From positions 1 through 37,748 of IMG/VR virus record IMGVR_UViG_3300005529_000069: a DNA stretch of 37,748 bases. One strand, written 5' to 3'. This DNA comes from a virus. Positions 591 to 36,013 of the stretch are shown piece after piece. A program made the translations under genes and the position numbers. Position 1 is the first letter of the stretch. Every line of letters begins with the position of its first letter. A model generated the notes under the pieces. That model saw only the letters and a program-made list of their open reading frames with translations, was not told where the DNA came from and made no database searches.

Positions 591-817
591 TTCGTCGCTC
601 GCCTTCTCGCGTCATGCGGGAACGACTTTCGAAGGCCCGTGACAACGGAGATGCAAGGTTCGCCGATCGCGGCTCCGCAACCAACGCGGCTACACGAGAC
701 GCGCAACGCCCGGATAGCCGCCTCAGCCCGGTCGGGACGGGACGGCAACGTGCGCCGTGCGAACCGAACCGTGAGGCCAGGGTCAGCGTTGATCCGCCCC
801 GTTGTCTCGGCGGTCAC
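587..817 (-). CDS. Small zinc-binding protein (phage zinc-finger family)
   Basis: 76 residues. The second half holds CSRVGCGAAIGEPC followed by a basic stretch with a His (FPHDARR). This matches the C-x(4)-C-G-A-x(2)-G-x-P-C ... H-x-x-R pattern of a small zinc-binding domain very common in actinobacteriophage early genes. The N-terminal half is basic and Arg-rich without a recognisable domain. The start overlaps the stop of the xis-like gene by ATGA and the stop overlaps the HNH start by GTGA, so it sits in the middle of the early leftward operon. Nucleic-acid binding is likely, but no specific function is known. Confidence 0.7.
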   Translation of the reverse strand: MTAETTGRINADPGLTVRFARRTLPSRPDRAEAAIRALRVSCSRVGCGAAIGEPCISVVTGLRKSFPHDARRRATK

Positions 818-999
818 GCCGACGCTGCTTCGGCATCGCGAAGCGCGGTCACGTCCTCCTCGCGGAAAAGGAACGCACCGTTGGGGCCGGGGAGCTTCTG
901 CGCGACTGGCAACGCCCCCGACTCGACCAGGCGGTGTACGGTGCGGACGGACTTACCGAGCAATAGCGCAACTTGGGGCGCAGTAAGCAGTTCGGCCAT
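814..999 (-). CDS. MerR/AlpA-like HTH protein, probable excisionase or Cro-like regulator
   Basis: 61 residues, nearly all one winged-HTH domain of the excisionase/MerR type: LTAPQVALLLGKSVRTVHRL is the helix-turn-helix, followed by a wing (GAFLFREEDVTAL). It is the first gene of the leftward early operon and is divergent from the repressor. The ATG at 999 lies 6 nt after a CATGAT -10 box, so the mRNA is probably leaderless. This position and fold fit either a directionality factor partnering the integrase at 1605 or the Cro-equivalent of the switch; the sequence alone does not decide. Confidence 0.8.
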   Translation of the reverse strand: MAELLTAPQVALLLGKSVRTVHRLVESGALPVAQKLPGPNGAFLFREEDVTALRDAEAASA

Positions 1000-1089: not shown

Positions 1090-1117
1090 TTGACGCATGG
1101 CGCGCATACGTCACAAT
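1090..1117 (+). promoter_or_regulatory. Repressor promoter, leaderless
   Basis: TTGACG (1090-1095), a 16-bp spacer and CACAAT (1112-1117). The ATG at 1124 starts 6 nt later, the same geometry as the divergent early promoter, implying a leaderless mRNA. The spacer is filled by a TGGCG-N6-CGTCA dyad, which would allow autoregulation. Confidence 0.6.
1098..1113. promoter_or_regulatory. Putative repressor operator (dyad, 6-bp spacing)
   Basis: TGGCGCGCATACGTCA: half-sites TGGCG and CGTCA around 6 bp, lying between the -35 and -10 of the repressor promoter. A further TGACG immediately upstream (1091-1095) gives a third half-site. Confidence 0.45.
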
Positions 1118-1123
1118 GCCGTT

Positions 1124-1564
1124 ATGACGACTTCCCTGCCTGCGGCTCCCCCGTGGACCCTCGGCTGGCGGCTGCGCCGGTCGCTGGAGTTCGCGGGCGT
1201 CAGCCGCGAAGCGATGGCCCAGCACCTCGGCGTCGCCGTCTCGACCATCACCCGCTGGACGCACGACGACTTCAAGCGCCCACCGAACAGGGCGAACCTG
1301 CTCGCATGGGCTCAGATCACGGGTGTCCCGCTCGAATGGCTGGAGGGCGACGAGGCGTCAGCGCCCGCTCCTGAGCCGGTCACTCTCAGTGACAAAGTGG
1401 CTGACGCGGGCGCGACAACTACTGCGAGTAAGCGGAAGCCGCAAACCGCGACACGCCGACGCTCAAAAGTGCACGGTACCCCTTCGTACCTGTCAGATTA
1501 CGAGAACATGAACTCGGGCACAACGGTTCCCACCGCAGATGCGCACTGCGCCGCTGCTGCTTAG
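1124..1564 (+). CDS. Phage immunity repressor (HTH)
   Basis: 146 residues from ATG 1124. A longer reading from ATG 1097 is possible, but it would begin inside the promoter, so 1124 is preferred. The N-terminal third carries a Cro/CI-type HTH (SREAMAQHLGVAVSTITRWT), followed by a conserved-looking LLAWAQITGVPLEWLEG segment. The C-terminal half is Ala/Thr/Ser/Arg-rich and looks disordered. It ends TADAHCAAAA, which resembles an ssrA-type degradation tail. It is divergent from the xis-like gene and upstream of the integrase. That is the order of phages in which attP lies inside the repressor gene, but no attP core was identified here. Confidence 0.8.
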   Translation: MTTSLPAAPPWTLGWRLRRSLEFAGVSREAMAQHLGVAVSTITRWTHDDFKRPPNRANLLAWAQITGVPLEWLEGDEASAPAPEPVTLSDKVADAGATTTASKRKPQTATRRRSKVHGTPSYLSDYENMNSGTTVPTADAHCAAAA

Positions 1565-1604: not shown

Positions 1605-2417
1605 ATGACGCAACTGATCGACGACTACAGGAACTGGCTGGTCGCCTCCGGGGCATCACCGGACACGGTACGCGCCCGCTGCAACGCCGCTAAGCGGCTG
1701 CTGGCAGTCGCCGGCACCGAGGATCCGACACAGATCAAGCCGACTGATCTCGTGCGGGTCCTCGCGTCCGTCGAGGCCCGCTGGTCAAAGGCGACCTACT
1801 TCCACCACGCGAAGAACTTCGGTCACTGGTGTCACTTCGCGGGCCTGCGCGTCAACTTCACCGAGGGTGTCGTGAAGCCGAAACGGCCCCGCAAGAACCC
1901 TCACCCTGCCGACCTCGCCGACTTCCGCCGCGCGGTCGAGCTCGCGAAGCCGGACGAGGCGATGATGCTGCTGCTCGCGGCCTACGCGGGCCTGCGGGTG
2001 CACGAGATCGCCAAGGTACGGGGGGAGCACCTTCGGGACGGCTGGTTGTTTCTCGTCGGTAAGGGGAGCAAGGACGCCAACATTCCGGTGCACCCGGTGC
2101 TCGCTCTGCAAGCCGAGAACTGGCCCTCGGAAGGATGGTGGTTTCCGGGGCAGAAGGAGGGGCAGCCGATCTCGCGCGGCACCGTCTGGCGTCGGATGAC
2201 GAGGGCGCTGCGCCGGGCTAACCCGCACACGACGGCCACGCCGCACGCAGTGCGGGCGCTCTACGCGACCATGTTGGTGAACCTCGGTGTCGACTTGCAG
2301 ACCACGCGAGAACTGATGCGCCACAGCGACCTCGGCTCGACGCAGTTCTACGTCCAGACCGGCGACGAACGGCTGAAAGCGGCTATCGGCCGCTTGCCTG
2401 ATTTCACCGTCGCCTGA
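1605..2417 (+). CDS. int: Tyrosine-family integrase
   Basis: 270 residues from ATG 1605, chosen over an upstream ATG at 1539 because GGGAAGG lies 4 nt before it and the upstream start overlaps the repressor. The N-terminal core-binding SAM-like domain spans about residues 1-85. Catalytic residues are visible: R131 (AGLRVHE), K153 (VGKGSK), H214/R217 (HAVR), H240 (MRHSD) and nucleophile Y249 (TQFYVQT). The length is normal for small actinophage integrases that act without a large arm-binding domain. It would integrate the genome at a host attB; the att core is not identified. It follows the repressor, so it may be expressed in the lysogenic direction. Confidence 0.95.
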   Translation: MTQLIDDYRNWLVASGASPDTVRARCNAAKRLLAVAGTEDPTQIKPTDLVRVLASVEARWSKATYFHHAKNFGHWCHFAGLRVNFTEGVVKPKRPRKNPHPADLADFRRAVELAKPDEAMMLLLAAYAGLRVHEIAKVRGEHLRDGWLFLVGKGSKDANIPVHPVLALQAENWPSEGWWFPGQKEGQPISRGTVWRRMTRALRRANPHTTATPHAVRALYATMLVNLGVDLQTTRELMRHSDLGSTQFYVQTGDERLKAAIGRLPDFTVA

Positions 2418-2484: not shown

Positions 2485-2886
2485 ATGGCTGGCAAAGGCT
2501 GGGGCATTCTCGCGGTCGGCGTCGTCGCGGCCGCCGTCATCGGCTCGCAGATGCACAGCGGCAGCAGCCCGAGTACCGGCAGCCCGTCGAGCACCTCGAA
2601 CCTGCCGTGGTCGGGTGAGTCGGTCGACCAGCAGCGCTACGACGCTTTCGTCGCCTGCCAGCATTTCGTCAACGAGCGGCTGAAGGCTCCGTCGACGGCG
2701 AGCTACCGGGACTGGTTCGGCGACCAGAAGCCCGCCGTGTCCGGGTCGGGGCGCGGTCCGTACACGGTCGTGTCGACGGTGGATTCGCAGAACTCGTTCG
2801 GGGCGCAGCTACGGTCGGACTTCTTGTGTGTGGTGACGCGGGACGCGAGCGACACCTGGCATTCGCGGCGTGTCGTTGTCGGCTGA
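2485..2886 (+). CDS. Membrane-anchored or exported protein, possible lysogenic conversion factor
   Basis: 133 residues with GGGAGG 4 nt before the ATG. Residues 4-21 form a hydrophobic segment (WGILAVGVVAAAVIG) that could be a signal anchor. A Ser/Gly/Pro linker follows, then a compact domain beginning DAFVACQHFVNERLKAPSTASY and containing a second Cys (FLCVV). This pattern (CQ-FV-x-RLKAPSTA ... YTV-x-VDSQNSFG) recurs in small actinobacterial membrane or lipoproteins of unknown function. The two Cys could pair outside the cell. Placement between integrase and late-gene terminus, in the lysogenic orientation and behind a possible operator, suggests a prophage-expressed surface protein such as a superinfection exclusion factor. 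That role is an inference. Confidence 0.7.
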   Translation: MAGKGWGILAVGVVAAAVIGSQMHSGSSPSTGSPSSTSNLPWSGESVDQQRYDAFVACQHFVNERLKAPSTASYRDWFGDQKPAVSGSGRGPYTVVSTVDSQNSFGAQLRSDFLCVVTRDASDTWHSRRVVVG

Positions 2887-2900
2887 GGACGCAGAAAGGT

Positions 2901-2980
2901 CCCCCCGTCCCGTGCCGACGACTGCGCTAGGTCGTCTGTACGTCGCAAGGGGGCCAGCGACGTGGCACGGGAACGGGGGG
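2901..2980. repeat. Three-way-junction inverted repeat / candidate structured RNA
   Basis: An outer 16-bp stem pairs 2901-2916 with 2964-2980 (one bulged A at 2972). Inside it two hairpins stand side by side: 2917-2922 with 2931-2936 (6 bp, 8-nt loop) and 2940-2946 with 2957-2963 (7 bp, 10-nt loop). Only 2937-2939 are unpaired at the junction, so 29 base pairs are made in 80 nt. No U-run follows on either strand, so it is not a classic intrinsic terminator. It starts 14 nt after the 2485 gene stop and lies upstream of the Cys-rich gene. Confidence 0.75.
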
Positions 2981-3017
2981 TGCGGGAGAAGGCGGGAAGT
3001 TGTCGGGGGTTCGGCGT

Positions 3018-3200
3018 ATGGTTCGGGGTGTGACAGCAGACGCGGCAGAGCGTGACCCGCGCGTCGTTCACGGTCCGAACGGGATGACCGTCTGCCTGCC
3101 GTGCGCGGTCAATGAGCACGAGTCCTGCCAGCACGGCAAGGATGGCATCGTTTGCGACGGGTGCGCGATCTGCCTCGCGGTGCTGCGCCCGGGCGTCTAG
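3018..3200 (+). CDS. Cys-rich mini-protein, probable zinc-binding
   Basis: 60 residues from ATG 3018; GTG 3030 and TTG 3000 are alternatives. The C-terminal half carries CLPC, ESCQH, and VCDGCAIC: six Cys plus His in about 25 residues, spaced like a compact zinc knuckle or ribbon. GGGGG lies 8 nt before the ATG. A TATGGT box at 3017-3022 would instead favour a leaderless start at GTG 3030. The stop codon shares a CTAG with the stop of the convergent late operon. I do not recognise a named family. Confidence 0.6.
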   Translation: MVRGVTADAAERDPRVVHGPNGMTVCLPCAVNEHESCQHGKDGIVCDGCAICLAVLRPGV

Positions 3201-3352
3201 CCCATCACGTCCTGTTCGCTGTTCGGCCCGACACGGCGGCGAGCGAGGTACGGGGCTACGCCGTACAGCCATATCGGCCAGACGATGCCGCGCCGGAACG
3301 CCTCAGCCGCGCACAGCGCCCCGACCGCGGGCAGGACGAGTAGCCGTTTCAC
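3197..3352 (-). CDS. Small basic protein with hydrophobic segments, last late gene
   Basis: 51 residues from a GTG overlapping the preceding stop as GTGA. A hydrophobic N-terminus (LLVLPAVGALCAAEAF) is followed by a second apolar stretch rich in Trp and Tyr (GIVWPIWLYGVAPYLA) and an Arg-rich end. It may be a small membrane protein. It ends the leftward late operon: its TAG (3199-3197) and the TAG of the plus-strand gene (3198-3200) share the palindrome CTAG. Family unknown. Confidence 0.6.
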   Translation of the reverse strand: MKRLLVLPAVGALCAAEAFRRGIVWPIWLYGVAPYLARRRVGPNSEQDVMG

Positions 3353-3522
3353 GGCAGTTCGCCGAGCAGCGCCGCTATCTCCCGTTCGTCCTCACGGATG
3401 CGGGACTCGGCGAGCTCGACGGCGACCTCGGCGCAGTGGACGGCGTCGTGTTCGTCGTCGCGGAGCAGTTGGATTCGTTCGCGGATCTCTGTCTCGGCGT
3501 CGCCGAGCGTCCAGTCGGTCAT
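3349..3522 (-). CDS. Small acidic helical protein
   Basis: 57 residues, ATG overlapping the GH71-like gene stop as ATGA and its own stop overlapping the next start as GTGA. Composition is acidic and Leu/Glu/Arg-rich (EIRERIQLLRDDE, ELAESRIREDEREIAALLGEL) with heptad-like spacing, so it is probably a short coiled coil. Unknown function; its coupling places it with the lysis/envelope genes. Confidence 0.65.
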   Translation of the reverse strand: MTDWTLGDAETEIRERIQLLRDDEHDAVHCAEVAVELAESRIREDEREIAALLGELP

Positions 3523-5060
3523 GGCAGGCTGCTCGCGGCGACGTATCCGAGGTCTTGCACGACCGGCTTGTCGGTGACGGGGTAGGGCGAGGTGACGGAG
3601 GCGACGGACTTGCCGTCGCGGGTCACTTCTGCGGACACCGAGCCCGTGACGAGTACCGCGACTGTTGCGGAGACGCCGGCGGGAGCCGAGGCGGGCGCTA
3701 AGTCGTCTATGGTCACCAGCGCGGGCGCAGTAAGGAAACTCAACGCTTCGACGACGTCTCCTGGCGGCGTCTGCCCGGCGTTCTTCATCAGCTTCGTCTC
3801 CGGGTACGACGGTTTCGCCTGCCACGGCTGCTGACGGTGCGTGAGGATCACCGCGTCTTGGAGGATGGTCGGCGGGGTGCCGAGCTTGTACCAGGCGGCG
3901 TAGTAGCTGGAGACGTCGAGGAACGCCCGCCCGTGCTGCATCGACGGCTGGTTCGCTGTGCCTTCGGTGTGGTCGTTCCACGTGATGAGCTGGACGGCGT
4001 CCGCGTCGTTGTCGATGGCGATCTGCCAGGTGGTCCGCAGGTTCCCGGTGTTCTGCGCCTCCCAGAACCGGCCCTCACGCGGACGCTCATCCTGCACCGA
4101 CACGGGCTGCATCCACTTCAAGCCCTTCGCCCGCGCAGCCTTGATGCGAGCGGCTGAGCCGGTCGGGCTGCTCCCGGTCGGGTCACGGGTACCCCACTCG
4201 GTGATCCCGTAGGCGATGGGTGCGTACTCGTCGATATGCGCGGTCGCGGACAGAAACAGCGGCCAGAACGCGACCGGCGTGTTGTACGTGCCGGTCAGCA
4301 GGAGAAGGAACTGCTTCCACCAGTCGACCGGGTGCGTCTCCGCGTGGAACGGCGCGACGACCAGCCGGCCGTCGTCGAGGCGGTAGCAGGCCGGGTTGGC
4401 CGCGGCGACCTTCGCGATAGCCGCGGCGAGCTCGTCGGCGGTCTTGCGGCCCGGACCGGACGTCATATCCGGCATCAGGCACACCGTGAATCCGCCGTGG
4501 TTGTTGGCGGCGTCGAGCAGGCATTGGACGACCCGCGCGTTGCGTTTCGTCCCGGCGTCGGAGCCTTCGCCGGGGAAGTTGAACAGGTTGACGGTGAACC
4601 CGTCGATGCCGTACGCGGCGGCGTTGGCGACTTCGGTTTCGGCGTCTTTCGCGAGCCAGTCGACCCCGGCCGGGTACGGGTCGCGGCCGAGGGGCCGGTC
4701 GCGCATCCAACCGCCGTACGCCTTGTGTTTGCCGCCTTCGCCGCCCGGGGTGAGGTATTGCGTCTGGTAGTAGTCGACGTTGGGTGGCTTGTTGTCGACG
4801 CTGATGGGGAGGCTGGGCACGTAGTGCGCGAACACCTTGCGGGGGCTGGCGGCCATCTGGTCGAGCGGTAGCGGGTGCGGCCAGCCGACCGGAGGCGGCA
4901 GCGCGGCGTTGTGGTCGCGGCAGGTCAGTTCGGCGTAGAGCGGCGTGTCCATCAGCCCGATGAGCACGTCGGCGTCGGACGGCTGCGGCCCGACCTGCGC
5001 GTAGATGGTGCGACCGACCTTGCGACCGGTGCGCCACGGCAACTGGTCGTAGGTGGTCAC
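3519..5060 (-). CDS. Glycoside hydrolase, GH71/GH99-like fold
   Basis: 513 residues from GTG 5060 (GTGA overlap). The N-terminal 60 residues look like an adaptor. Residues 70-400 read as a GH71-type TIM barrel: KVFAHYVPSLPISVDNK near the start, YGIDGFTVNLFNFPGEG, GFTVCLMPDMTSG, and near the end DAVQLITWNDHTEGT, the family's characteristic W-N-D-x(2)-E strand end. The last 110 residues are Ala/Val/Thr-rich and Ig-like. GH71 enzymes cut alpha-1,3-glucans, so the expected target is an alpha-glucan or other envelope polysaccharide of the host. The gene is embedded in the lysis region behind holin, but it could equally be virion-borne. The family call rests on motifs recalled by eye. Confidence 0.65.
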   Translation of the reverse strand: MTTYDQLPWRTGRKVGRTIYAQVGPQPSDADVLIGLMDTPLYAELTCRDHNAALPPPVGWPHPLPLDQMAASPRKVFAHYVPSLPISVDNKPPNVDYYQTQYLTPGGEGGKHKAYGGWMRDRPLGRDPYPAGVDWLAKDAETEVANAAAYGIDGFTVNLFNFPGEGSDAGTKRNARVVQCLLDAANNHGGFTVCLMPDMTSGPGRKTADELAAAIAKVAAANPACYRLDDGRLVVAPFHAETHPVDWWKQFLLLLTGTYNTPVAFWPLFLSATAHIDEYAPIAYGITEWGTRDPTGSSPTGSAARIKAARAKGLKWMQPVSVQDERPREGRFWEAQNTGNLRTTWQIAIDNDADAVQLITWNDHTEGTANQPSMQHGRAFLDVSSYYAAWYKLGTPPTILQDAVILTHRQQPWQAKPSYPETKLMKNAGQTPPGDVVEALSFLTAPALVTIDDLAPASAPAGVSATVAVLVTGSVSAEVTRDGKSVASVTSPYPVTDKPVVQDLGYVAASSLP

Positions 5061-5137: not shown

Positions 5138-5457
5138 GGCTTCGGCGCTACCACCGGAGCAGGAGACGCCGGGCCGATCACACCGCGGGTCTTCGCCCAC
5201 AGCGCCGTAGGAATCTGCGAGCGGTGCGCGAGCGTCGTCGCGACCAGCGCAGCGAACACATTGGACAGGTACGTCTTCCAGTTGTCGCCGGGGTTGAAGG
5301 CAACAGTCGGCAGCACACCCGCGAGCGTCGCCAGAGCAACCGTCACCGCGCCGAGCACCCACGCCGGAGCGTGCGCCTTCGTCAACAGACCCGCAGCATG
5401 CGCGGCGAAGTAGCCGACGATCAGAGAGATCGCGAAGGAGATCTGGACGTGGGTCAT
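5134..5457 (-). CDS. Holin
   Basis: 107 residues, ATGA-coupled to the PLD-like gene. Three hydrophobic segments are visible at about residues 5-26, 32-51 and 61-80, then an Ala/Pro-rich hydrophilic C-terminus ending VVAPKP. Size, topology and position two genes after the amidase fit a holin that permeabilises the membrane at the end of infection. The specific holin family was not identified. Confidence 0.75.
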   Translation of the reverse strand: MTHVQISFAISLIVGYFAAHAAGLLTKAHAPAWVLGAVTVALATLAGVLPTVAFNPGDNWKTYLSNVFAALVATTLAHRSQIPTALWAKTRGVIGPASPAPVVAPKP

Positions 5458-6011
5458 GTGGTCCCTGCTTTCGCGGCCCTAGCGGCCATCTGCTTGAGAG
5501 CGTCGGTATGTTCGAGATCGAGCACTCGTCGCGCTTCCACGCAAGCGACGTTGTCCAGTAGGACGGTCAGTTCGTTGTCCTGCAACGACTCACCCGACGT
5601 GGACCAGTTTGTCGACCCTGAGATCCGCCACGTCCCATCGACGACGACCATCTTTCTATGCATAATCTGGTGCTTCTCCGACTGACCGATGGCGACGCTG
5701 TTGCCGGTGAACTCGTGGGAGAACTTCTCGAGGATCGCCTTCTCATGGACGCCGCCCGCCTGCGAGCGGTCGAGGGTGATCTGCACGTAGATCGCGGGGT
5801 TCTTCAGCAGGTCGTCGAGCATCGCGGCGAGTTCGTCATCGTCGAACCCGAACATCGCGACTTGAATCGTCGAGGTGCAGGAGCCGATGACGGCTTTGAG
5901 CGCGTCGTGGACGTTGTCCTCGGGCGAGTAGAACGTCCGCATGGAGTCGGCGTAGCCGGCGAGCAGCGGCGTGGTCTTGAACTGGTCGAGGTCGGTGATG
6001 GCGAGGGTCAT
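5454..6011 (-). CDS. Phospholipase D-like / Nuc-type HKD enzyme
   Basis: 185 residues. A single HKD signature is clear: HRKMVVVD followed by GTWRISGSTNWS, giving H-x-K-x(4)-D and the downstream GSxN motif. One motif per chain matches the Nuc subfamily, which dimerises to build the active site; substrates are phosphodiesters in phospholipids or DNA. It is coupled to the endolysin by ATGA and to the holin by ATGA, so it is co-expressed with lysis genes. No obvious signal peptide. Membrane lipid hydrolysis and DNA degradation are both possible. Confidence 0.8.
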   Translation of the reverse strand: MTLAITDLDQFKTTPLLAGYADSMRTFYSPEDNVHDALKAVIGSCTSTIQVAMFGFDDDELAAMLDDLLKNPAIYVQITLDRSQAGGVHEKAILEKFSHEFTGNSVAIGQSEKHQIMHRKMVVVDGTWRISGSTNWSTSGESLQDNELTVLLDNVACVEARRVLDLEHTDALKQMAARAAKAGTT

Positions 6012-7534: not shown

Positions 7535-7807
7535 TCAACGGTTCCGGCAGAGGATCTTGACCGTGTCGTCGTCCTGCCGACCTGCCGACGTGGTGACGTG
7601 GATGACGATGTTGTAGTTCGTGACGTCCGACCCGCCTGACAGCCAGAATACGACGCCGGTCCCGTCCGTGGTGATCGCGTGACTGTTCACGGTGATACCA
7701 GGGTCAGCCGTGACGGTCGCCGCCGTGATGATCTCGGGCGGCGTGAGGTACGGCGTCCAGTCGGACAGGTAGTCCTTGACGGCGTCGGGGTCTTTCAGGA
7801 ACGCCAT
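7535..7807 (-). CDS. Small tail-associated protein of unknown function
   Basis: 90 residues, start overlapping the stop of the repeat protein as TGATG. It contains DYLSDWTPYLTPPEIITAATVTADPGI and then a beta-rich, Ig-like C-terminus (GVVFWLSGGSDVTNYNIVIHVTTSAG). This resembles small phage virion proteins with one beta-sandwich encoded after tail fibre genes. Possibly a head or tail decoration protein. Confidence 0.65.
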   Translation of the reverse strand: MAFLKDPDAVKDYLSDWTPYLTPPEIITAATVTADPGITVNSHAITTDGTGVVFWLSGGSDVTNYNIVIHVTTSAGRQDDDTVKILCRNR

Positions 7808-9393
7808 CAGTGGACCTCCTGCACTCGACGCTCGCCGGGTCGGGTTTGCACGCTCACTTCGACGCCGCGGATCTGCACGTCGAACGCTGCCAGGCGGGTC
7901 TGCGCTCGCGGGTCGGCAGCCTTGGCTTGCACGCGGTTCTCGGCACCGCGGGTCTGGATTCGGTCGGATGGTGTTGCGGTGGGTACGAGCTTGACTACGT
8001 CGAGCGTGTCGCTGATCGCGATGAGGTCGGCGAGCGCCCGTGCGTCGGTGAGCAACCGCAGCGCCGTGTCGGAGATCGGTATGACGTCGCCGAGCCCGTG
8101 CGCGTCGGCGAGCGCCCGGCCGAGGCTGTCCGACAGCGAGATCGTGTCGCCGAGGCTGCGACTGTCTGCCGTCGTCCTAGCGAGTGAGTCCGAGACAGGA
8201 ATCGTGTCGGCGAGCGCCCGGCTGTCCGCCTGCGTGGTGCCGAGGCTGTCGCTGACGCTGATCGTGTCCGCGAGCGACCGTGACAGCGACACGTTGCCGC
8301 TGCTCTGGCTGGTCGCCAGCGAGTCCGACAGCGGAATCGTGTCGGCCAGCGCCCTCGGGTCGGCTTCCGTCCGGGCGAGACTGTCGGACACCGGAATGGT
8401 GTCGGCGAGAGCGCGCGGGTCGGTCTGCTGACGAGCGAGCGAGTCGCTGATCGGGATCGTCTCGGCGAGCGCCCGCGGTTCCTGCGGGACCCTGGCGAGG
8501 TTGTCCGAGACGCTGATCGTGTCGGCAAGTGCTCGGGCTTCGGTCTGCGCCGACCGGGCGAGCGTGTCACTGATGCTGATCGCGTCGGCGAGGTTCCGAA
8601 CGTCAGCGACCGTGCGGGCCAGCGAGTCCGAGAACGGGACCGTGTCCGCGAATGCCCGCGGCTGCGCGTCGGAGCGGGTGAGGCTGTCCGAGAAGGGGAT
8701 CATGTCCGACAGCGACGTGCTCGCCGAGACTGACCCCTCGACCAGGTCCATGATGACGTAGACGACAGCGTTAGCGCCGCCCGTGACCGTGTCGCTGAAC
8801 GTCGACGTCGCCGTGGACGTCGCGGCGGTCATCAGCGCGCCGAAGAAGCCCTGGACGTCGGCGAACTCGTTGAGCGTCTGAGACGTGAACCCGTTCGCGG
8901 TCTCAGCGGAGTTCGACTGGAACCCGGCGTTCTGGCCGACCGCGAGCAGGTATTTCGTGCCGGACGGTGACGACGTGTCGATGGTGATCGCGCTCGACGT
9001 CCACGTCGCGGTCGACGCGGACACACCCCCGGTGAGGTGCGCCCACGGCGTCGGCGACTGCCGGGCGTTCGGCGTCTGCCACATGATGTAGCGGTAGGTC
9101 TTCGACCCGTCCGAAACGGTGACCGACTGGTTCGTTCCGGCCTTCGAGGTGTCGGCAGGCTGCCAGAACAGGTAGATGAACGCGCCGCTCGTGCCGTTCG
9201 CCTCGTGGTCGGCGAGGTTCCAGCCTGACGGGGTAGTGACGGTCTGCGACGTGCCGAGGTTCGTGGTCGACACGACCATCCACACGTCGCCGGACGGGTC
9301 GATCGTCGCCGGGTACGGCACCGAGAGCGGATTGCCAGCCCCTGGCGATGTCGCACCGTGGGCTGTGACGTTGGTGATGCTGATCGTCGCCAT
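7807..9393 (-). CDS. Tail fibre-like protein with two tandem-repeat arrays
   Basis: 528 residues. Residues 1-220 look like a beta-sandwich (VSTTNLGTSQTVTTPSGWNL, YLFWQPADTSKAG, YRYIMWQTPNA). Residues 227-467 hold 12 copies of a roughly 20-residue unit with consensus ALADTIPVSDSLARTxADxR. Residues 477-528 hold six copies of a 9-residue unit with core VQTRxxExR. The protein lies after the tailspike, among tail genes, so a fibre or fibre-tip role is likely. The arrays suggest an elongated shaft whose length could change by recombination. Only the general class can be called. Confidence 0.75.
   Translation of the reverse strand: MATISITNVTAHGATSPGAGNPLSVPYPATIDPSGDVWMVVSTTNLGTSQTVTTPSGWNLADHEANGTSGAFIYLFWQPADTSKAGTNQSVTVSDGSKTYRYIMWQTPNARQSPTPWAHLTGGVSASTATWTSSAITIDTSSPSGTKYLLAVGQNAGFQSNSAETANGFTSQTLNEFADVQGFFGALMTAATSTATSTFSDTVTGGANAVVYVIMDLVEGSVSASTSLSDMIPFSDSLTRSDAQPRAFADTVPFSDSLARTVADVRNLADAISISDTLARSAQTEARALADTISVSDNLARVPQEPRALAETIPISDSLARQQTDPRALADTIPVSDSLARTEADPRALADTIPLSDSLATSQSSGNVSLSRSLADTISVSDSLGTTQADSRALADTIPVSDSLARTTADSRSLGDTISLSDSLGRALADAHGLGDVIPISDTALRLLTDARALADLIAISDTLDVVKLVPTATPSDRIQTRGAENRVQAKAADPRAQTRLAAFDVQIRGVEVSVQTRPGERRVQEVH
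7810..7965 (-). repeat. Coding 27-bp tandem repeat (9-residue units)
   Basis: Six units in frame: DRIQTRGAE, NRVQAKAAD, PRAQTRLAA, FDVQIRGVE, VSVQTRPGE and the partial RRVQEVH. Each has Q at position 4, usually after Val. Confidence 0.75.
7993..8715 (-). repeat. Coding 60-bp tandem repeat (about 12 units of 20 residues)
   Basis: In-frame units such as ALADTIPVSDSLARTEADPR and ALADTIPVSDSLARTTADSR. Invariant features are the D four residues in, the I/V before a central SDxL, and R ending most units. One unit carries a 5-residue insertion (SSGNVSLSR). Confidence 0.85.
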
Positions 9394-21715: not shown

Positions 21716-23128
21716 TTAGAAGGTCGGTGCGACGAGGCCGGTGCCGTTGATGACAGCCACCGACGTCGTGTAACGGGAGACGATCTGCGCGGAGTAGGCC
21801 AGCGCCCGGAACAGGACACCCGCCGAGTCCGCGTACGGCTCACGGAACGTCTCGAGCCGCAACGCGCCTTCGTAGAGCCGCAGGTCGCCGCGGATACCCA
21901 CGAACACCGGGTCCTGGTTGGTGCCGGCGCCGAGGTTCGTCGGGATGTTCGGGTCGGTGATGACCTGCAGGCCGCCGAAGTAGCCGACGACACCCTGCGC
22001 GACGTCCGGGCCGGTCTCGCCGACCGGGTTGAACGCGGCGCCGAGCGGCACGACCAGCGGGCGGCTGTTCGCGTCGACCGAGGCGAGGATCCAGTTCCAG
22101 CGGCGCGGGTGCATCCAGATCGTGTCCGGCGGCATGAACCGCGCGGTCTCGATCGCGGACGCGGCGCCGAACACCTTCGAGTAGAAGGAGTTCGCGGTCG
22201 TCGACGACGCCACCGCAGGCGATGCGGAGGTGAAGGTGACGTTGACCGTGCCCGACGCGTTGAAGTACGTGTAGACGCCGTTGAGCTGCCCGGACGCGCC
22301 CGAACCGGAGATGACCTGCGTGCCGTAACGCTGCGCGTAGTCGGCGGCCAGGTCGCGGAGCACAACCTCGTCGAACGGGATGCCCGACTGGTCGAGAAGC
22401 TGCTGCGCGACGACCTGCTTGCCGCCGATCGTCGAGATCGCGCTTGAGATCGACCCGGTCGTCATGTCGGTCTGGCTCAACGCCGTGTTCTGCGTGGTCT
22501 GGATCGCTGTCGTCGTCCCGCCGGTGATCTTCGGCAGGTTGACGCTCGACACGCCTTCGGGCAGCGGACGCGGCCCGATCGAGTCGGCGAACTTGCGGCC
22601 CGGCCGCGCGTACGCGACGAAGTCCTCGATCAGCCACAGCGGCGGGCTGAACTCGCCGCCGGACCCACCAGCGCCGCCGGTGTTGCCGAGAGCACGCAGT
22701 TCCGGCTCGGTCCGCTTGGCGAGCTCGTCCTGCGCCTGCAAGGCGCTGCGGCGCAGCCGGTCGGCCGCGTCGGCGTCGCCGGTCTGCTGGGCGAGGAACA
22801 GGTCACGGAAGTACGACTGGCCGATCTTGTAGCGGTGGTAGACGGGCGCGTCGGTGACGTGCGCCCGCTGGTCGCCGACGTCGCCGGCGGCCTTGCGTGC
22901 CTCGTCGGCGTCGCGCCGCCGCTTGTCCAGCTCGACGAGTTCGGTGATCCGCTCGTCGAACGCGCGGATCTCGGCGACTGCCGCTTTGAACGCGGCGTCT
23001 TCCTCGTCGGTGAACGCGCGGTTCTCGGTGGTGAGCTTGCCGGTCAGGTCGTCGATCTCCTTCTGCTTCGCGTCACGGTTGTCGCGAATCTGGGAGATCA
23101 GGGGGTTCTCAACCACGGTCGTGGTCAT
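21716..23128 (-). CDS. Major capsid protein, HK97 fold
   Basis: 470 residues. Residues 1-110 form the coiled-coil delta/scaffold domain (KQKEIDDLTGKLTTENRAFTDEEDAAFKAA). A Gly-rich junction (GNTGGAGGSGGEFSPP) near residue 155 precedes the mature shell domain, with the P-domain helix (PFDEVVLRDLAADYAQRYGTQVISGSG) and late strands (RFMPPDTIWMHPRRWNWILA). This is the usual HK97 architecture, processed by the upstream protease. AGGAGG lies 6 nt before the ATG. Confidence 0.93.
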   Translation of the reverse strand: MTTTVVENPLISQIRDNRDAKQKEIDDLTGKLTTENRAFTDEEDAAFKAAVAEIRAFDERITELVELDKRRRDADEARKAAGDVGDQRAHVTDAPVYHRYKIGQSYFRDLFLAQQTGDADAADRLRRSALQAQDELAKRTEPELRALGNTGGAGGSGGEFSPPLWLIEDFVAYARPGRKFADSIGPRPLPEGVSSVNLPKITGGTTTAIQTTQNTALSQTDMTTGSISSAISTIGGKQVVAQQLLDQSGIPFDEVVLRDLAADYAQRYGTQVISGSGASGQLNGVYTYFNASGTVNVTFTSASPAVASSTTANSFYSKVFGAASAIETARFMPPDTIWMHPRRWNWILASVDANSRPLVVPLGAAFNPVGETGPDVAQGVVGYFGGLQVITDPNIPTNLGAGTNQDPVFVGIRGDLRLYEGALRLETFREPYADSAGVLFRALAYSAQIVSRYTTSVAVINGTGLVAPTF

Positions 23129-30191: not shown

Positions 30192-30248
30192 TTTCGTTAC
30201 TGAAGGAGCGGGGGAGGAACGGTCGCTCTGATTCGGTTGGCCGCTCAT
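30183..30248 (-). CDS. Micro-ORF, 21 residues, with SDR box
   Basis: ATG 30248 overlaps the Dam stop (ATGA) and the TGA overlaps the next ATG. It encodes MSGQPNQSDRSS and PAPSVTKGE, so it carries the recurrent SDR start box but ends soon after. It looks like a start module without its gene body. Confidence 0.45.
   Translation of the reverse strand: MSGQPNQSDRSSPAPSVTKGE
30220..30227 (-). repeat. SDR start box 2
   Basis: AGCGACCG in CAGAGCGACCGTTCC, coding QSDRS at residues 7-11 of the micro-ORF 30183-30248. Confidence 0.6.
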
Positions 30249-31081
30249 GCTGAGGCCTCCGAGAACAGCGTTCCTTCACTGTCGGTGACGAGCGCGCGGT
30301 TGCTCCACAGAACCTCAGTGCGTGCGCCTGTGCCTCGGTTCGCGTTGCCGGTGAAGGAGGAGATCTCGACCCGGTGCCAGCCGTCATACAACTCGTCGTA
30401 GAGCGGCGAGTGGTAGCCCGACAGGACGACGGCGGCTCGAGCCGCGTGCAGCGCGTCGGCCAGTTCCCGGTGCTCCTCCACGGTGGTCATCTCATGGCGG
30501 TAGTTCCGGGCTCGAGTGGATCCGAGGTACGGCGGGTCGCAGTAGAGCAGGACGTCCTCGTGACGTCCGTATGCCCGGATCAGGTCGAGCCCGGGCCGCG
30601 CCTCCAGCGTGACGCCGATCAGCCGTCCAGCGGCCGGTGGCATGCGCTCGACGTAGCCCTCGAGGTAGCGCGGCATGCCGGCCGACGTGCCCTTCGGGTC
30701 CTGGTAGTGCCGCCAGCCGGTTCGGCGCATCGTGGAGGACCTCGTCTGCGTGAGCAGCACCCAGACGCGGCGGGCACGCTCGAGCTCGTCTGTGACGGCT
30801 GCGAGGTCCTCCGCTCGCGCGGCCGCGTGCTCAAGCCGCGCGTGAGGCGTCAGCGCGCAGACCCTGGCCAGGTCGTCGGGCCGGTCCCGGAGCACCCGCC
30901 AGAAGGTCATGATGTCCGCGTCGAGGTCGTTGACCGTCTCCATGCGAGCCGGTGGCTTGGCGAGCAGCACGGCGAGGCTGCCGCCGAACGGTTCGACGTA
31001 GTGGTCATGGGCTGGGAGCAATCCCGCGATGGCGTCGGCCAGTGTCGTCTTGCCACCGAAGTAGGTGAACGGCGACTTCAC
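30245..31081 (-). CDS. D12-class adenine-N6 DNA methyltransferase (Dam-like)
   Basis: 278 residues from GTG 31081 (GTGA overlap). SAM-binding motif FTYFGGK at residues 5-11, VEPFGGS at 29-35, NDLDADIM at 51-58, and the catalytic DPPY at 182-185 (LLYCDPPYLGS). A late SGYHSP strand is typical of the D12 class. No cognate restriction enzyme is nearby, so it is an orphan. Protection against host restriction or regulation by methylation are the usual roles. Recognition sequence cannot be read. Confidence 0.92.
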   Translation of the reverse strand: MKSPFTYFGGKTTLADAIAGLLPAHDHYVEPFGGSLAVLLAKPPARMETVNDLDADIMTFWRVLRDRPDDLARVCALTPHARLEHAAARAEDLAAVTDELERARRVWVLLTQTRSSTMRRTGWRHYQDPKGTSAGMPRYLEGYVERMPPAAGRLIGVTLEARPGLDLIRAYGRHEDVLLYCDPPYLGSTRARNYRHEMTTVEEHRELADALHAARAAVVLSGYHSPLYDELYDGWHRVEISSFTGNANRGTGARTEVLWSNRALVTDSEGTLFSEASA

Positions 31082-33720: not shown

Positions 33721-34157
33721 GCCCGCTCACCCCCTGCGACCATCGCCAGCGCGTCGGCGACAACGGAAAGGTCCGGGTAGGTCTGCCGGAAGACGACGGT
33801 AGGGATTCCGGCCCTCTCCGCTTCGGTGGCGCAGTGTGTTGCGCCGTTGCTCTCGTTGCGGATGAATGCGAGGCAGAGGTCGGCACCGAGCCGGACCATC
33901 GCAGAGTTACGGATGAACCCGGCGCTCGCGCCGCGCTGTTTCCAGTTCGCGGGGTGCGGTTCGTTCGTCGCGCGTGAATCCATCCTGGCCCACAGCGACG
34001 CCCAGGTGTCGGCACCCCTAGGGCAAGCGCCGTGCACCACGGTTACGTCAGCCCGTGCTGCCAGTTCGTCGAGCGCCTCGTAAATCGGCGTCTTGTCCCG
34101 CCACTCTCGGGAACCGGTGACAAGCACGCGGAGCGGGGCTCTATTCTCAGGTTTCAC
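33717..34157 (-). CDS. SLOG-family (DUF2493/YspA-like) nucleotide-sensing protein
   Basis: 146 residues from GTG 34157 (GTGA overlap), preferred over ATG 34199. A Rossmann-like core is clear: LRVLVTGSREWRDKTPIYEA, VTVVHGACPRGADTWA (the GxxxGAD nucleotide loop), and GADLCLAFIRNESNGATHCA. Members bind nucleotides or nucleotide-derived signals and occur in phages and defence loci. Partner and ligand unknown. Confidence 0.85.
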   Translation of the reverse strand: MKPENRAPLRVLVTGSREWRDKTPIYEALDELAARADVTVVHGACPRGADTWASLWARMDSRATNEPHPANWKQRGASAGFIRNSAMVRLGADLCLAFIRNESNGATHCATEAERAGIPTVVFRQTYPDLSVVADALAMVAGGERA

Positions 34158-34330
34158 GGCCGCTGCCTCCTGACAGGTGGTTGGCCTAGAGAGCGGCACT
34201 CGTTAGCGCGGGTGCCGTTCTCGCTGCCTGCAATGTTACGCCGCTCTTCCCCTGTTGGCGAGGTCTGGTTTCGTTGCGATTCAACGGTTTCCCGCCCCTC
34301 CCTGCCCGTGTCGGCGCGGAGCGGGGTCAC
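34154..34330 (-). CDS. Small Arg/Glu/Gly-rich early protein
   Basis: 58 residues, GTG overlapping the Dcm stop (GTGA) and TGA overlapping the SLOG start (GTGA). TPLRADTGREGRETVESQRN then GSENGTRANECRSLGQPP: polar and probably disordered. Support is mainly the two-sided overlap. Confidence 0.5.
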   Translation of the reverse strand: MTPLRADTGREGRETVESQRNQTSPTGEERRNIAGSENGTRANECRSLGQPPVRRQRP

Positions 34331-35298
34331 GAGGCGGCTGCCGAGGTCAGGCCGAGCAGGGTCGCGACAGCGAGCGCGCACTGTTGCGGGACGACGCTGT
34401 TGCCGAGAGCTTTGAGCGCGGCGTTGCGCGTGAGGAGGTCGGTGACCCAGCCTTCGGGGTAGCCCTGCATCCATTCGACGAAGCGGGGGCTTAGGCGCTC
34501 TCCGGTTCGTCCGGGCTCGGTAGGTCGGGGGGCCGGTCGTCCGGTGGCGTGTTCCCATCGTCGAATTGCGGGTTCGTAGGTGCCCCAAGCAGTGTCACGG
34601 CGTCGGTCAGCGTGTCCCCGGCGTGGATTCCTGTCGGCGGCAGCTTGTGGCGCGCTGCCGTTGAGTTGCGGGCCGACTTCGCGTCCCCGGCCGTCGGCGT
34701 CGGTAGCAGCGTCTTCACCACCCCCGGCAGGAGCAGTTCGTCCGACCTCGCGCCTCCGCGCGTCAAGTGTCCGCCCAGCGCGTCTGCTGCGCTCGGAGTC
34801 GGTAGCAATTCCATGACCGCGCTCGGCAGCAACGATGAACACGCGAGCCCGGCCATGACAAGCCCCGGCGTCGGCAGCTCGTATAACTCCCCACGTCGCG
34901 TCGTACCCCAGCGCGGCAAGGTCAGCGAGGACGGCGTCGAGTCCGAGAGAAACGTGCCCTGCGACGTTCTCCAACAGCACGCATCGGGGTCGAAGAACGC
35001 CAACGGCGCGCGCCACGAACGGCCAGATGTGACGCTCATCGTTGCTGCCTTTCCGTTTGCCTGCGTGAGAGAACGGCTGGCACGGGTAGCCGGCCGTGAT
35101 CCAGTCGATGGGTTCGACCTGCGTCCAGTCCGTCGCGGTGAGGTCGCCGTAGTTGGGGACGCCGGGGAATCGTTCGGCGAGGACTTTCGACGGATGGGGG
35201 TCGTTCTCCGCATGCCACGCGACGGTGCCGCCGACGACGGCTTGCAGACCGAGTTCGAGTCCGCCGATACCGGAGCAGAGCGAGCCGATGCGCATCAT
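34327..35298 (-). CDS. C5-cytosine DNA methyltransferase (Dcm-like)
   Basis: 323 residues, ATGA overlap. Motif I IGSLCSGIGGLELGL, motif IV TAGYPCQPFSHAGKRKG with catalytic C73, motif VI LLENVAGH (Glu 110), motif VIII-like GRARVFIVAA. Near the end come RLSPRFVEWMQGYPEGW and motif X ALGNSVVP. Between about 34590 and 34810 this frame is Arg/Ala/Gly-rich while another frame reads a conserved LPTP-type sequence. An orphan enzyme; likely anti-restriction. Target sequence cannot be inferred. Confidence 0.9.
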   Translation of the reverse strand: MMRIGSLCSGIGGLELGLQAVVGGTVAWHAENDPHPSKVLAERFPGVPNYGDLTATDWTQVEPIDWITAGYPCQPFSHAGKRKGSNDERHIWPFVARAVGVLRPRCVLLENVAGHVSLGLDAVLADLAALGYDATWGVIRAADAGACHGRARVFIVAAERGHGIATDSERSRRAGRTLDARRREVGRTAPAGGGEDAATDADGRGREVGPQLNGSAPQAAADRNPRRGHADRRRDTAWGTYEPAIRRWEHATGRPAPRPTEPGRTGERLSPRFVEWMQGYPEGWVTDLLTRNAALKALGNSVVPQQCALAVATLLGLTSAAAS

Positions 35299-35546: not shown

Positions 35547-36013
35547 GCCGACCGCTTCCGCTGGTTGTGCAGCGAGTGGGCGCTACGGCAGGGTTGGCAT
35601 GGCGGTTCGAGGCGGACGCGGTGCTGGTGGTAGCCGCGTTCGGTGCCGTGCTCGACAGGCAGCAGGCTGCGACCGGGGACGGGAAACGGCGCACCTTGCC
35701 TCGCCCGATGCGTGCACGTGCCGCAGCAGCCGTCCTGAGCGCAGCAGCGGGCCTCGTCGGCGTTGCACGACGCGCATGGCGGGCCGAGGTCGTGGGTGAA
35801 ACCTTCGCCGAACGTGATGCTGGTCCGGTGAACGTATGTGAGGACCGTCCGGCCCGTGTCCTTCCCAAGACTTCGAGCCGGACGACCCTCGCCGGCTGCC
35901 GCACGGGGGACGGCTGCCGTACCCGATGGCGCTCCACCGGGAGATGTTGCCGTCTCTGTCTGGGTCGGGACGGCGGGAACGGAGACGAGAGAGGAACGGT
36001 CGCTAGGAGGCAT
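35543..36013 (-). CDS. Cys-rich early protein with SDR box
   Basis: 156 residues from ATG 36013. After MPPSDRSS comes a Pro/Thr/Ala-rich low-complexity region (about residues 10-60). A Cys-dense part follows: GPPCASCNADEARCCAQDGC, CGTCTHRARQG and LEPPCQPCRSAHSLH. Several CxxC pairs suggest zinc binding; the last resembles the C-terminal pair of HNH-like or resolvase-type zinc folds. Unknown. Confidence 0.6.
   Translation of the reverse strand: MPPSDRSSLVSVPAVPTQTETATSPGGAPSGTAAVPRAAAGEGRPARSLGKDTGRTVLTYVHRTSITFGEGFTHDLGPPCASCNADEARCCAQDGCCGTCTHRARQGAPFPVPGRSLLPVEHGTERGYHQHRVRLEPPCQPCRSAHSLHNQRKRSA
35997..36004 (-). repeat. SDR start box 6
   Basis: AGCGACCG in CTAGCGACCGTTCC at codons 4-6 (MPPSDRSS). 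Confidence 0.6.

What the first reader, a model, noticed from the sequence alone, without database searches (positions are those of the whole stretch)
2901..2980. 80-nt three-way junction in the lysogeny region
Positions 2901-2980 fold into a 16-bp outer stem (one bulged A) enclosing two abutting hairpins of 6 and 7 bp, leaving three unpaired nucleotides at the junction. Such compact pairing over 80 nt is unlikely by chance even at this GC content. There is no U-run and no overlapping gene. It could be a small structured RNA, an RNA processing or stability element, a protein-binding cruciform, or an attachment/transfer-related site. Loop sequences TGCGCTAG and AAGGGGGCCA are candidates for contacts.
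Basis: seen in the sequence. Interest (0 to 1): 0.75.

Follow-up and report, generated by a model that had tools for sequence, protein, structure and literature searches.

The report
Branched transcript-end hairpin beside integrase genes
A real, unusually stable, three-armed fold sits just after the integrase gene cluster of an actinobacterial-type temperate phage, where related phages carry plain hairpins at the ends of gene clusters, so it is most likely a transcription-stop or transcript-end signal with an unusual shape.

Summary
The fold is real. Positions 2901-2980 form a 16-bp outer stem (one bulged A), two abutting hairpins and a 3-nt junction. MFE is -56.1 kcal/mol, z about -6 on either strand; 0 of 40,000 dinucleotide shuffles match it. 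It is the window's strongest 80-nt fold, but energy alone is not overwhelming: 1 of 16 block-shuffled windows held a stronger one. The lysogeny setting is confirmed: excise-like gene, repressor and tyrosine integrase, laid out as in integration-dependent-immunity actinophages. No homologue of the element was found, so covariation could not be tested. Position is the best evidence. In 14 phage loci with related integrases, very strong hairpins (z <= -5.5) occur at 5.1/kb in convergent gaps and 1.6/kb in rightward tandem gaps, against 0.06/kb in genes; few have a U-run. I read the feature as a U-poor, perhaps two-way transcript-end hairpin (terminator, or barrier to 3' trimming) that insulates the repressor-integrase-lipoprotein operon from the convergent late operon. 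The branched shape is rare: the only case outside an ORF in 1.09 Mb surveyed. A trans-acting RNA or attachment site is not supported. Function is untested.

The parts
2901..2980 (.). Three-way-junction element; folds equally well from either strand
2901..2916 (.). 5' arm of the 16-bp outer stem (CCCCCCGTCCCGTGCC)
2917..2936 (.). Left inner hairpin, 6 bp plus a U-G closing pair
2940..2963 (.). Right inner hairpin, 7 bp; junction UGU at 2937-2939
2964..2980 (.). 3' arm of the outer stem, with bulged A2972
2981..2988 (+). Tail after the stem for rightward transcripts: TGCGGGAG, 1 U in 8
2893..2900 (-). Tail after the stem for leftward transcripts: ACCTTTCT, 4 U in 8
814..999 (-). Excise-like small HTH gene (HTH_17, phrog_66), start of the leftward early side
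1097..1564 (+). Immunity repressor (HTH_3, phrog_2328), C-terminus HCAAAA; true start possibly ATG 1124
1605..2417 (+). Tyrosine integrase
2485..2886 (+). 133-aa protein of phrog_13160, probably exported/lipoprotein-like; its stop codon lies 14 nt before the element
3000..3200 (+). Small Cys-rich ORF after the element (start 3000 or 3030); stop overlaps the stop of the convergent ORF
   Evidence: no homologue found
3197..3352 (-). Last ORF of the leftward operon (51 aa), convergent with the lysogeny side

Best explanation
The element is a transcript-end hairpin of the lysogeny operon, most likely a U-poor ('I-shaped') terminator with an unusual branched form. Proposed mechanism (inferred): as RNA polymerase leaves the repressor-integrase-lipoprotein genes, the two inner hairpins fold first and bring the arms of the outer stem together; the GC-rich 16-bp stem closes behind the polymerase, stalls or dislodges it, and leaves a 3' end that resists exonucleases. 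On the other strand the same DNA gives an equally stable hairpin followed by CUUUCU, so it could also stop leftward late transcription before it runs antisense through integrase and repressor. Shown here: the fold, its place 14 nt after a stop codon, and the enrichment of strong hairpins at operon ends beside related integrases. Not shown: any termination.
For: Stable fold on both strands. Position right after the last long rightward gene of the repressor-integrase operon and before the convergent late operon. In 14 phage loci with related integrases, hairpins with z <= -5.5 occur at 5.08/kb in convergent gaps and 1.62/kb in rightward tandem gaps, against 0.06/kb in genes and 0 in leftward tandem gaps. 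9 of 13 cassettes carry one between int and the late genes, mostly U-poor. Published precedents: U-less I-shaped terminators within 50 bp of stop codons in mycobacteria (PMC12288462); U-lacking structured transcript ends in Streptomyces (PMC8269248); late transcription of phage L5 ends in the gap before integrase (PMC5712189).
Against: No homologue, so conservation of the fold is untested. The surveyed hairpins are plain and 34-48 nt long; this one is branched and 80 nt. The need for a U-tract in mycobacteria is disputed (Czyz 2014, cited in PMC12288462, reports that it is required). The rightward Cys-rich ORF after the element, if real, needs its own promoter or read-through. Three of 13 cassettes have no such hairpin and one only a weak one. 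The survey is small and partly non-independent.
Confidence: 0.5

Rival explanations
1. It is not a terminator but a barrier to 3' exonucleases: transcripts end farther downstream (for example by Rho) and are trimmed back to this stable stem, which protects the int-lipoprotein mRNA.
For: Same positional evidence as above. Streptomyces U-lacking structured ends are interpreted either way, following E. coli Rho-dependent ends that are trimmed back to stable stems (PMC8269248). Rho is reported as the dominant mechanism in M. tuberculosis (PMC12288462).
Against: Nothing here separates it from a terminator; the weak U-tail on the - strand slightly favours termination in that direction.
Confidence: 0.24
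2. The fold is a chance or functionless product of GC-rich non-coding DNA.
For: 1 of 16 block-shuffled windows had an even stronger 80-nt fold. No homologues, so no sign of selection.
Against: 0 of 40,000 shuffles of the element reach its energy. It is the window's best fold and lies in a gap at an operon end, where strong hairpins are enriched about 80-fold (convergent) or 27-fold (rightward tandem) over genes in related loci.
Confidence: 0.12
3. It is a small structured RNA or cis-regulatory RNA (acting in trans, or sensing something) whose three-way junction matters.
For: Compact three-helix shape with a tight junction; the only branched strong fold outside an ORF in 1.09 Mb surveyed.
Against: No Rfam family, no homologue of sequence or arms, and no promoter-like match in front of it in the sigma-70 scan (actinobacterial promoters are poorly covered). 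It folds equally well from both strands, as simple palindrome-like stems do.
Confidence: 0.08
4. It is a DNA site: attachment/recombination site, transfer origin or protein-binding cruciform.
For: Folds stably as ssDNA and lies about 0.5 kb from the integrase gene.
Against: The cassette matches phages with attP inside the repressor gene (PMC4557955), and the repressor has a matching Ala-rich C-terminus. No tRNA-like core lies at the element, and it shares no 10-mer with the repressor's 3' region. No transfer gene was recognised among the neighbouring proteins scanned.
Confidence: 0.05

Closest known systems
I-shaped (U-less) intrinsic terminators / highly structured U-lacking transcript ends of high-GC actinobacteria (PMC12288462, PMC8269248)
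   Same: GC-rich stable stem, close after a stop codon, no U-run on the + strand.
   Different: Branched and 80 nt long rather than one hairpin of about 35-50 nt; termination not shown; - strand has a weak U-tail.
Operon-end hairpins beside int in phages Charlie, Santhid, HUHilltop, BigNuz, Walrus and others (found here)
   Same: Place between integrase and the convergent late genes, high stability, mostly U-poor tails, same gene order.
   Different: Those are single hairpins of 34-48 nt; no sequence similarity to the window element was found by blastn.
Late terminator in the gene 32-33 gap before integrase of mycobacteriophage L5 (PMC5712189)
   Same: Hairpin between late genes and integrase, proposed to stop late transcripts.
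   Different: L5 is a different phage group; its terminator is supported by RNA-seq, this one is not.
Hairpin-cluster terminators (PMC8355165)
   Same: More than one hairpin proposed to act as one termination unit, mostly within 80 nt of the stop codon, poly-U not required.
   Different: As I read that paper, its clusters are neighbouring hairpins; here two hairpins are enclosed in a third stem.

Membership tests
I-shaped (U-less) intrinsic terminator | Very stable GC-rich stem shortly after a stop codon | tested here: met
   z about -6, stem starts 14 nt after the stop at 2886
I-shaped (U-less) intrinsic terminator | No U-run after the stem | tested here: met
   + strand tail TGCGGGAG, 1 U in 8; the - strand tail has 4
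I-shaped (U-less) intrinsic terminator | Single unbranched hairpin | tested here: not met
   Three-way junction on both strands, so not filed as a plain member
I-shaped (U-less) intrinsic terminator | Transcription actually ends there | not testable with these tools
   Needs 3'-end sequencing or a reporter
Canonical (L-shaped) intrinsic terminator | Hairpin followed by a U-run | tested here: not met
   + strand 1 U in 8; - strand 4 in 8, broken by C; not found by the terminator scan, which allows only loops of 3-8
Known structured RNA family (Rfam 15) | Covariance-model score at or above the gathering score | tested here: not met
   No match at gathering; at E <= 10 only chance-level eukaryotic models
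Conserved structured RNA | Stems maintained by compensatory changes in homologues | not testable with these tools
   No homologue found
Integration-dependent-immunity cassette (BPs, Charlie type; the setting, not the element) | excise leftward, repressor then tyrosine integrase rightward, late genes convergent | tested here: met
   against 29-31, 51, 53, 55, 57, 58, 60, 61
Integration-dependent-immunity cassette (BPs, Charlie type; the setting, not the element) | ssrA-like C-terminus on the viral repressor | tested here: inconclusive
   Window repressor ends HCAAAA; 12 of 13 reference repressors end in AA or VA; degradation not testable
Integration-dependent-immunity cassette (BPs, Charlie type; the setting, not the element) | attP inside the repressor gene | tested here: inconclusive
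   No tRNA-like core recognised in the window; the host is unknown
Phage attachment site | Core shared with a host tRNA gene or other attB | tested here: inconclusive
   No tRNA 3'-half motif at the element; no host genome to compare

The most novel reading that the evidence does not exclude
A branched three-way-junction transcript-end element, possibly working in both directions, in which two inner hairpins fold first and draw together a long U-less terminator stem: a terminator architecture distinct from single or side-by-side hairpins, or else a new phage structured RNA.
Probability: 0.15. Interest if true: 0.5.

Novelty: new variant of a known kind. Interest (0 to 1): 0.3.

Why it matters
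If it acts as proposed, it shows how temperate actinobacterial phages keep the repressor-integrase operon apart from the oncoming late operon without a U-run, and adds a branched shape that single-hairpin terminator finders miss (one search missed it). The survey also yields a small set of U-poor hairpins beside integrases in phages of laboratory hosts (M. smegmatis, Gordonia terrae) that could test the disputed question of U-less termination in actinobacteria. As one example without homologues, its own weight is modest.

Tried and rejected
Sequence homologues of the element: blastn against phages and plasmids and exact-arm patterns in viral and genome contigs, all negative apart from a chance 21-base match to phage VWB. 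Neighbour-protein routes: no relative of the integrase, the 133-aa protein, the GH71-like protein or the Cys-rich ORF in viral contigs. Terminase and capsid relatives are distant or on short contigs. Integrase relatives in two draws of 395 genomes are 45% identical or less. A 53% relative of the 133-aa protein sits in another context (L096), where no comparable inverted repeat was apparent downstream by eye. No covariance model was built, because one sequence cannot show covariation. The only other branched strong fold in 1.09 Mb (L025:3321) lies inside an ORF and was set aside. The attP reading was dropped on the cassette type and the lack of a tRNA-like core. One script failed on file names and one timed out; both were rerun in corrected form. 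Czyz 2014 (PMC3993855) is not held and is cited through the review.

Full report
What is there. RNA folding gives -56.1 kcal/mol on the + strand (z -6.14) and -54.8 on the - strand (z -6.47); single-stranded DNA gives -33.9 (z -6.90). The shape persists when 221 nt of context are folded on either strand. It is the most stable 80-nt fold of the 37.7-kb window.

How far beyond chance. None of 40,000 dinucleotide-preserving shuffles of the 80 nt reaches its energy (lowest -55.5); a conservative Gumbel fit gives about 7e-4 per site. The best 80-nt fold in 320 shuffles of the surrounding 500 nt is -53.4. The window is long and GC-rich, however: shuffled in 300-nt blocks, its best 80-nt fold reached -57.3 in one of 16 trials. 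Energy alone would not make a strong case; position adds more.

Setting. The window is a linear IMG/VR virus record. Upstream of the element, rightward, lie a repressor (HTH_3, phrog_2328), a tyrosine integrase (PF00589) and a 133-aa protein of phrog_13160; a leftward excise-like HTH gene precedes them. The stem begins 14 nt after the stop of the 133-aa gene. Downstream lies a small Cys-rich ORF (start 3000 or 3030, stop 3200) whose stop overlaps that of a leftward ORF at the end of the late side. The integrase's matches among Mycobacterium and Gordonia phages are mostly about 30-35% identical, and most retrieved cassettes have the same order: excise leftward, repressor and integrase rightward, a few accessory genes, then leftward late/lysis genes. 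Phages of clusters G, I, N and P are of the integration-dependent-immunity type, in which attP lies inside the repressor gene and the viral repressor carries an ssrA-like tail (PMC4557955). The window's repressor ends in HCAAAA, and 12 of 13 reference repressors end in AA or VA. This makes the element an unlikely attachment site, although attP itself was not located.

Comparative evidence. No homologue of the element was found in phages, plasmids, viral contigs or genome contigs, nor a relative of its neighbour proteins in viral contigs. The compensatory-change test is therefore impossible with the material held. Instead I asked whether other phages have something similar at the same place. 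In 14 phage loci (135 kb) with related integrases and their published annotation, hairpins with z <= -5.5 occur at 5.08 per kb in convergent gaps, 1.62 in rightward tandem gaps, 0.79 in divergent gaps, 0 in leftward tandem gaps and 0.06 in genes. The counts are small: 21 strong hairpins, 13 of them intergenic. HUHilltop and Shipwreck are near-duplicates here, and other pairs from one genus are not fully independent. Nine of 13 cassettes have such a hairpin between int and the late genes; Clown, Rem711 and Butters have none in a gap, and phiGD34-2 only a weak one. Tails are U-poor on the + strand (0 to 3 U in 8) and somewhat richer on the - strand (1 to 5).

Interpretation. The element is best read as the transcript-end hairpin of the repressor-integrase-lipoprotein operon. 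Mycobacteria are reported to use U-less I-shaped terminators within 50 bp of stop codons (PMC12288462). In Streptomyces clavuligerus about two thirds of highly structured transcript ends (353 of 535) lack U, and the authors offer two readings: I-shaped terminators or trimmed ends of Rho-dependent transcripts (PMC8269248). Clusters of hairpins have been proposed as termination units without poly-U (PMC8355165). In phage L5 late transcription ends in the gap before integrase, at a predicted strong terminator (PMC5712189). By the S. clavuligerus criterion (3 or more U in 8) the element is U-lacking for rightward and U-rich for leftward transcripts (1 and 4 U), so it may work in both directions. 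The folding order (inner hairpins first, then the outer stem) is inference. Whether it terminates transcription or only blocks exonucleases is unresolved, and the need for a U-tract in mycobacteria is disputed in the work that the review cites.

What is unusual. Among 96 very stable 80-nt folds (MFE <= -44, z <= -4.5) in about 1.09 Mb of phage, prophage and host DNA, only two were branched with an outer stem of 8 bp or more, and the other lies inside an ORF of a Streptomyces contig. That survey scanned one strand with 80-nt windows, so it is a rough rarity estimate. With one example and no homologue, a specific role for the branching cannot be claimed.

Verdict. The most probable role is ordinary (transcript end and insulation) with an unusual shape. 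Interest 0.3.

Noticed in passing
window 3519-5060 (-): 513-aa protein with a glycosyl hydrolase family 71 domain (PF03659, E 8.8e-27) at the end of the late side; no tblastn match in 50,697 phage records and none in viral contigs.
   Followed up: partly
window 1097-1564 (+): Repressor ends in HCAAAA, like the Ala-ended repressors of integration-dependent-immunity phages; attP probably lies in this gene but was not located.
   Followed up: partly
window 3000-3200 (+): Small Cys-rich ORF without known relatives; TATGGT at 3017-3022 is spaced like a -10 box for a leaderless GTG start at 3030, and its stop overlaps that of the convergent ORF 3197-3352 (CTAG). Seen by eye.
   Followed up: no
window 5454-6011 (-): PLD-like domain protein (PLDc_2, E 5.4e-14) among the late genes.
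   Followed up: no
window 7807-9393 (-): 528-aa protein with many copies of a motif like 'ALADTIPVSDSLAR'; no Pfam match.
   Followed up: no
window 34327-35298 (-) and 30245-31081 (-): Two DNA methyltransferases: C5-cytosine type (PF00145) and D12 adenine type (PF02086).
   Followed up: no
window 35841-35920, 22841-22920, 34156-34235: Other very stable 80-nt folds (-48.5, -51.8 and -45.0 kcal/mol); gene context not examined.
   Followed up: no
L085:6451-6496 and L089:5983-6017: Gordonia phages Walrus and CaptainKirk2 share GUCCAGGUUCAGAG just after a strong hairpin downstream of int; such families could serve a covariation test of plain operon-end hairpins.
   Followed up: no
L087:5025-7417 (phage phiGD34-2): Genes after int in this M. 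abscessus phage are annotated as ESX complex and WXG100 proteins.
   Followed up: no
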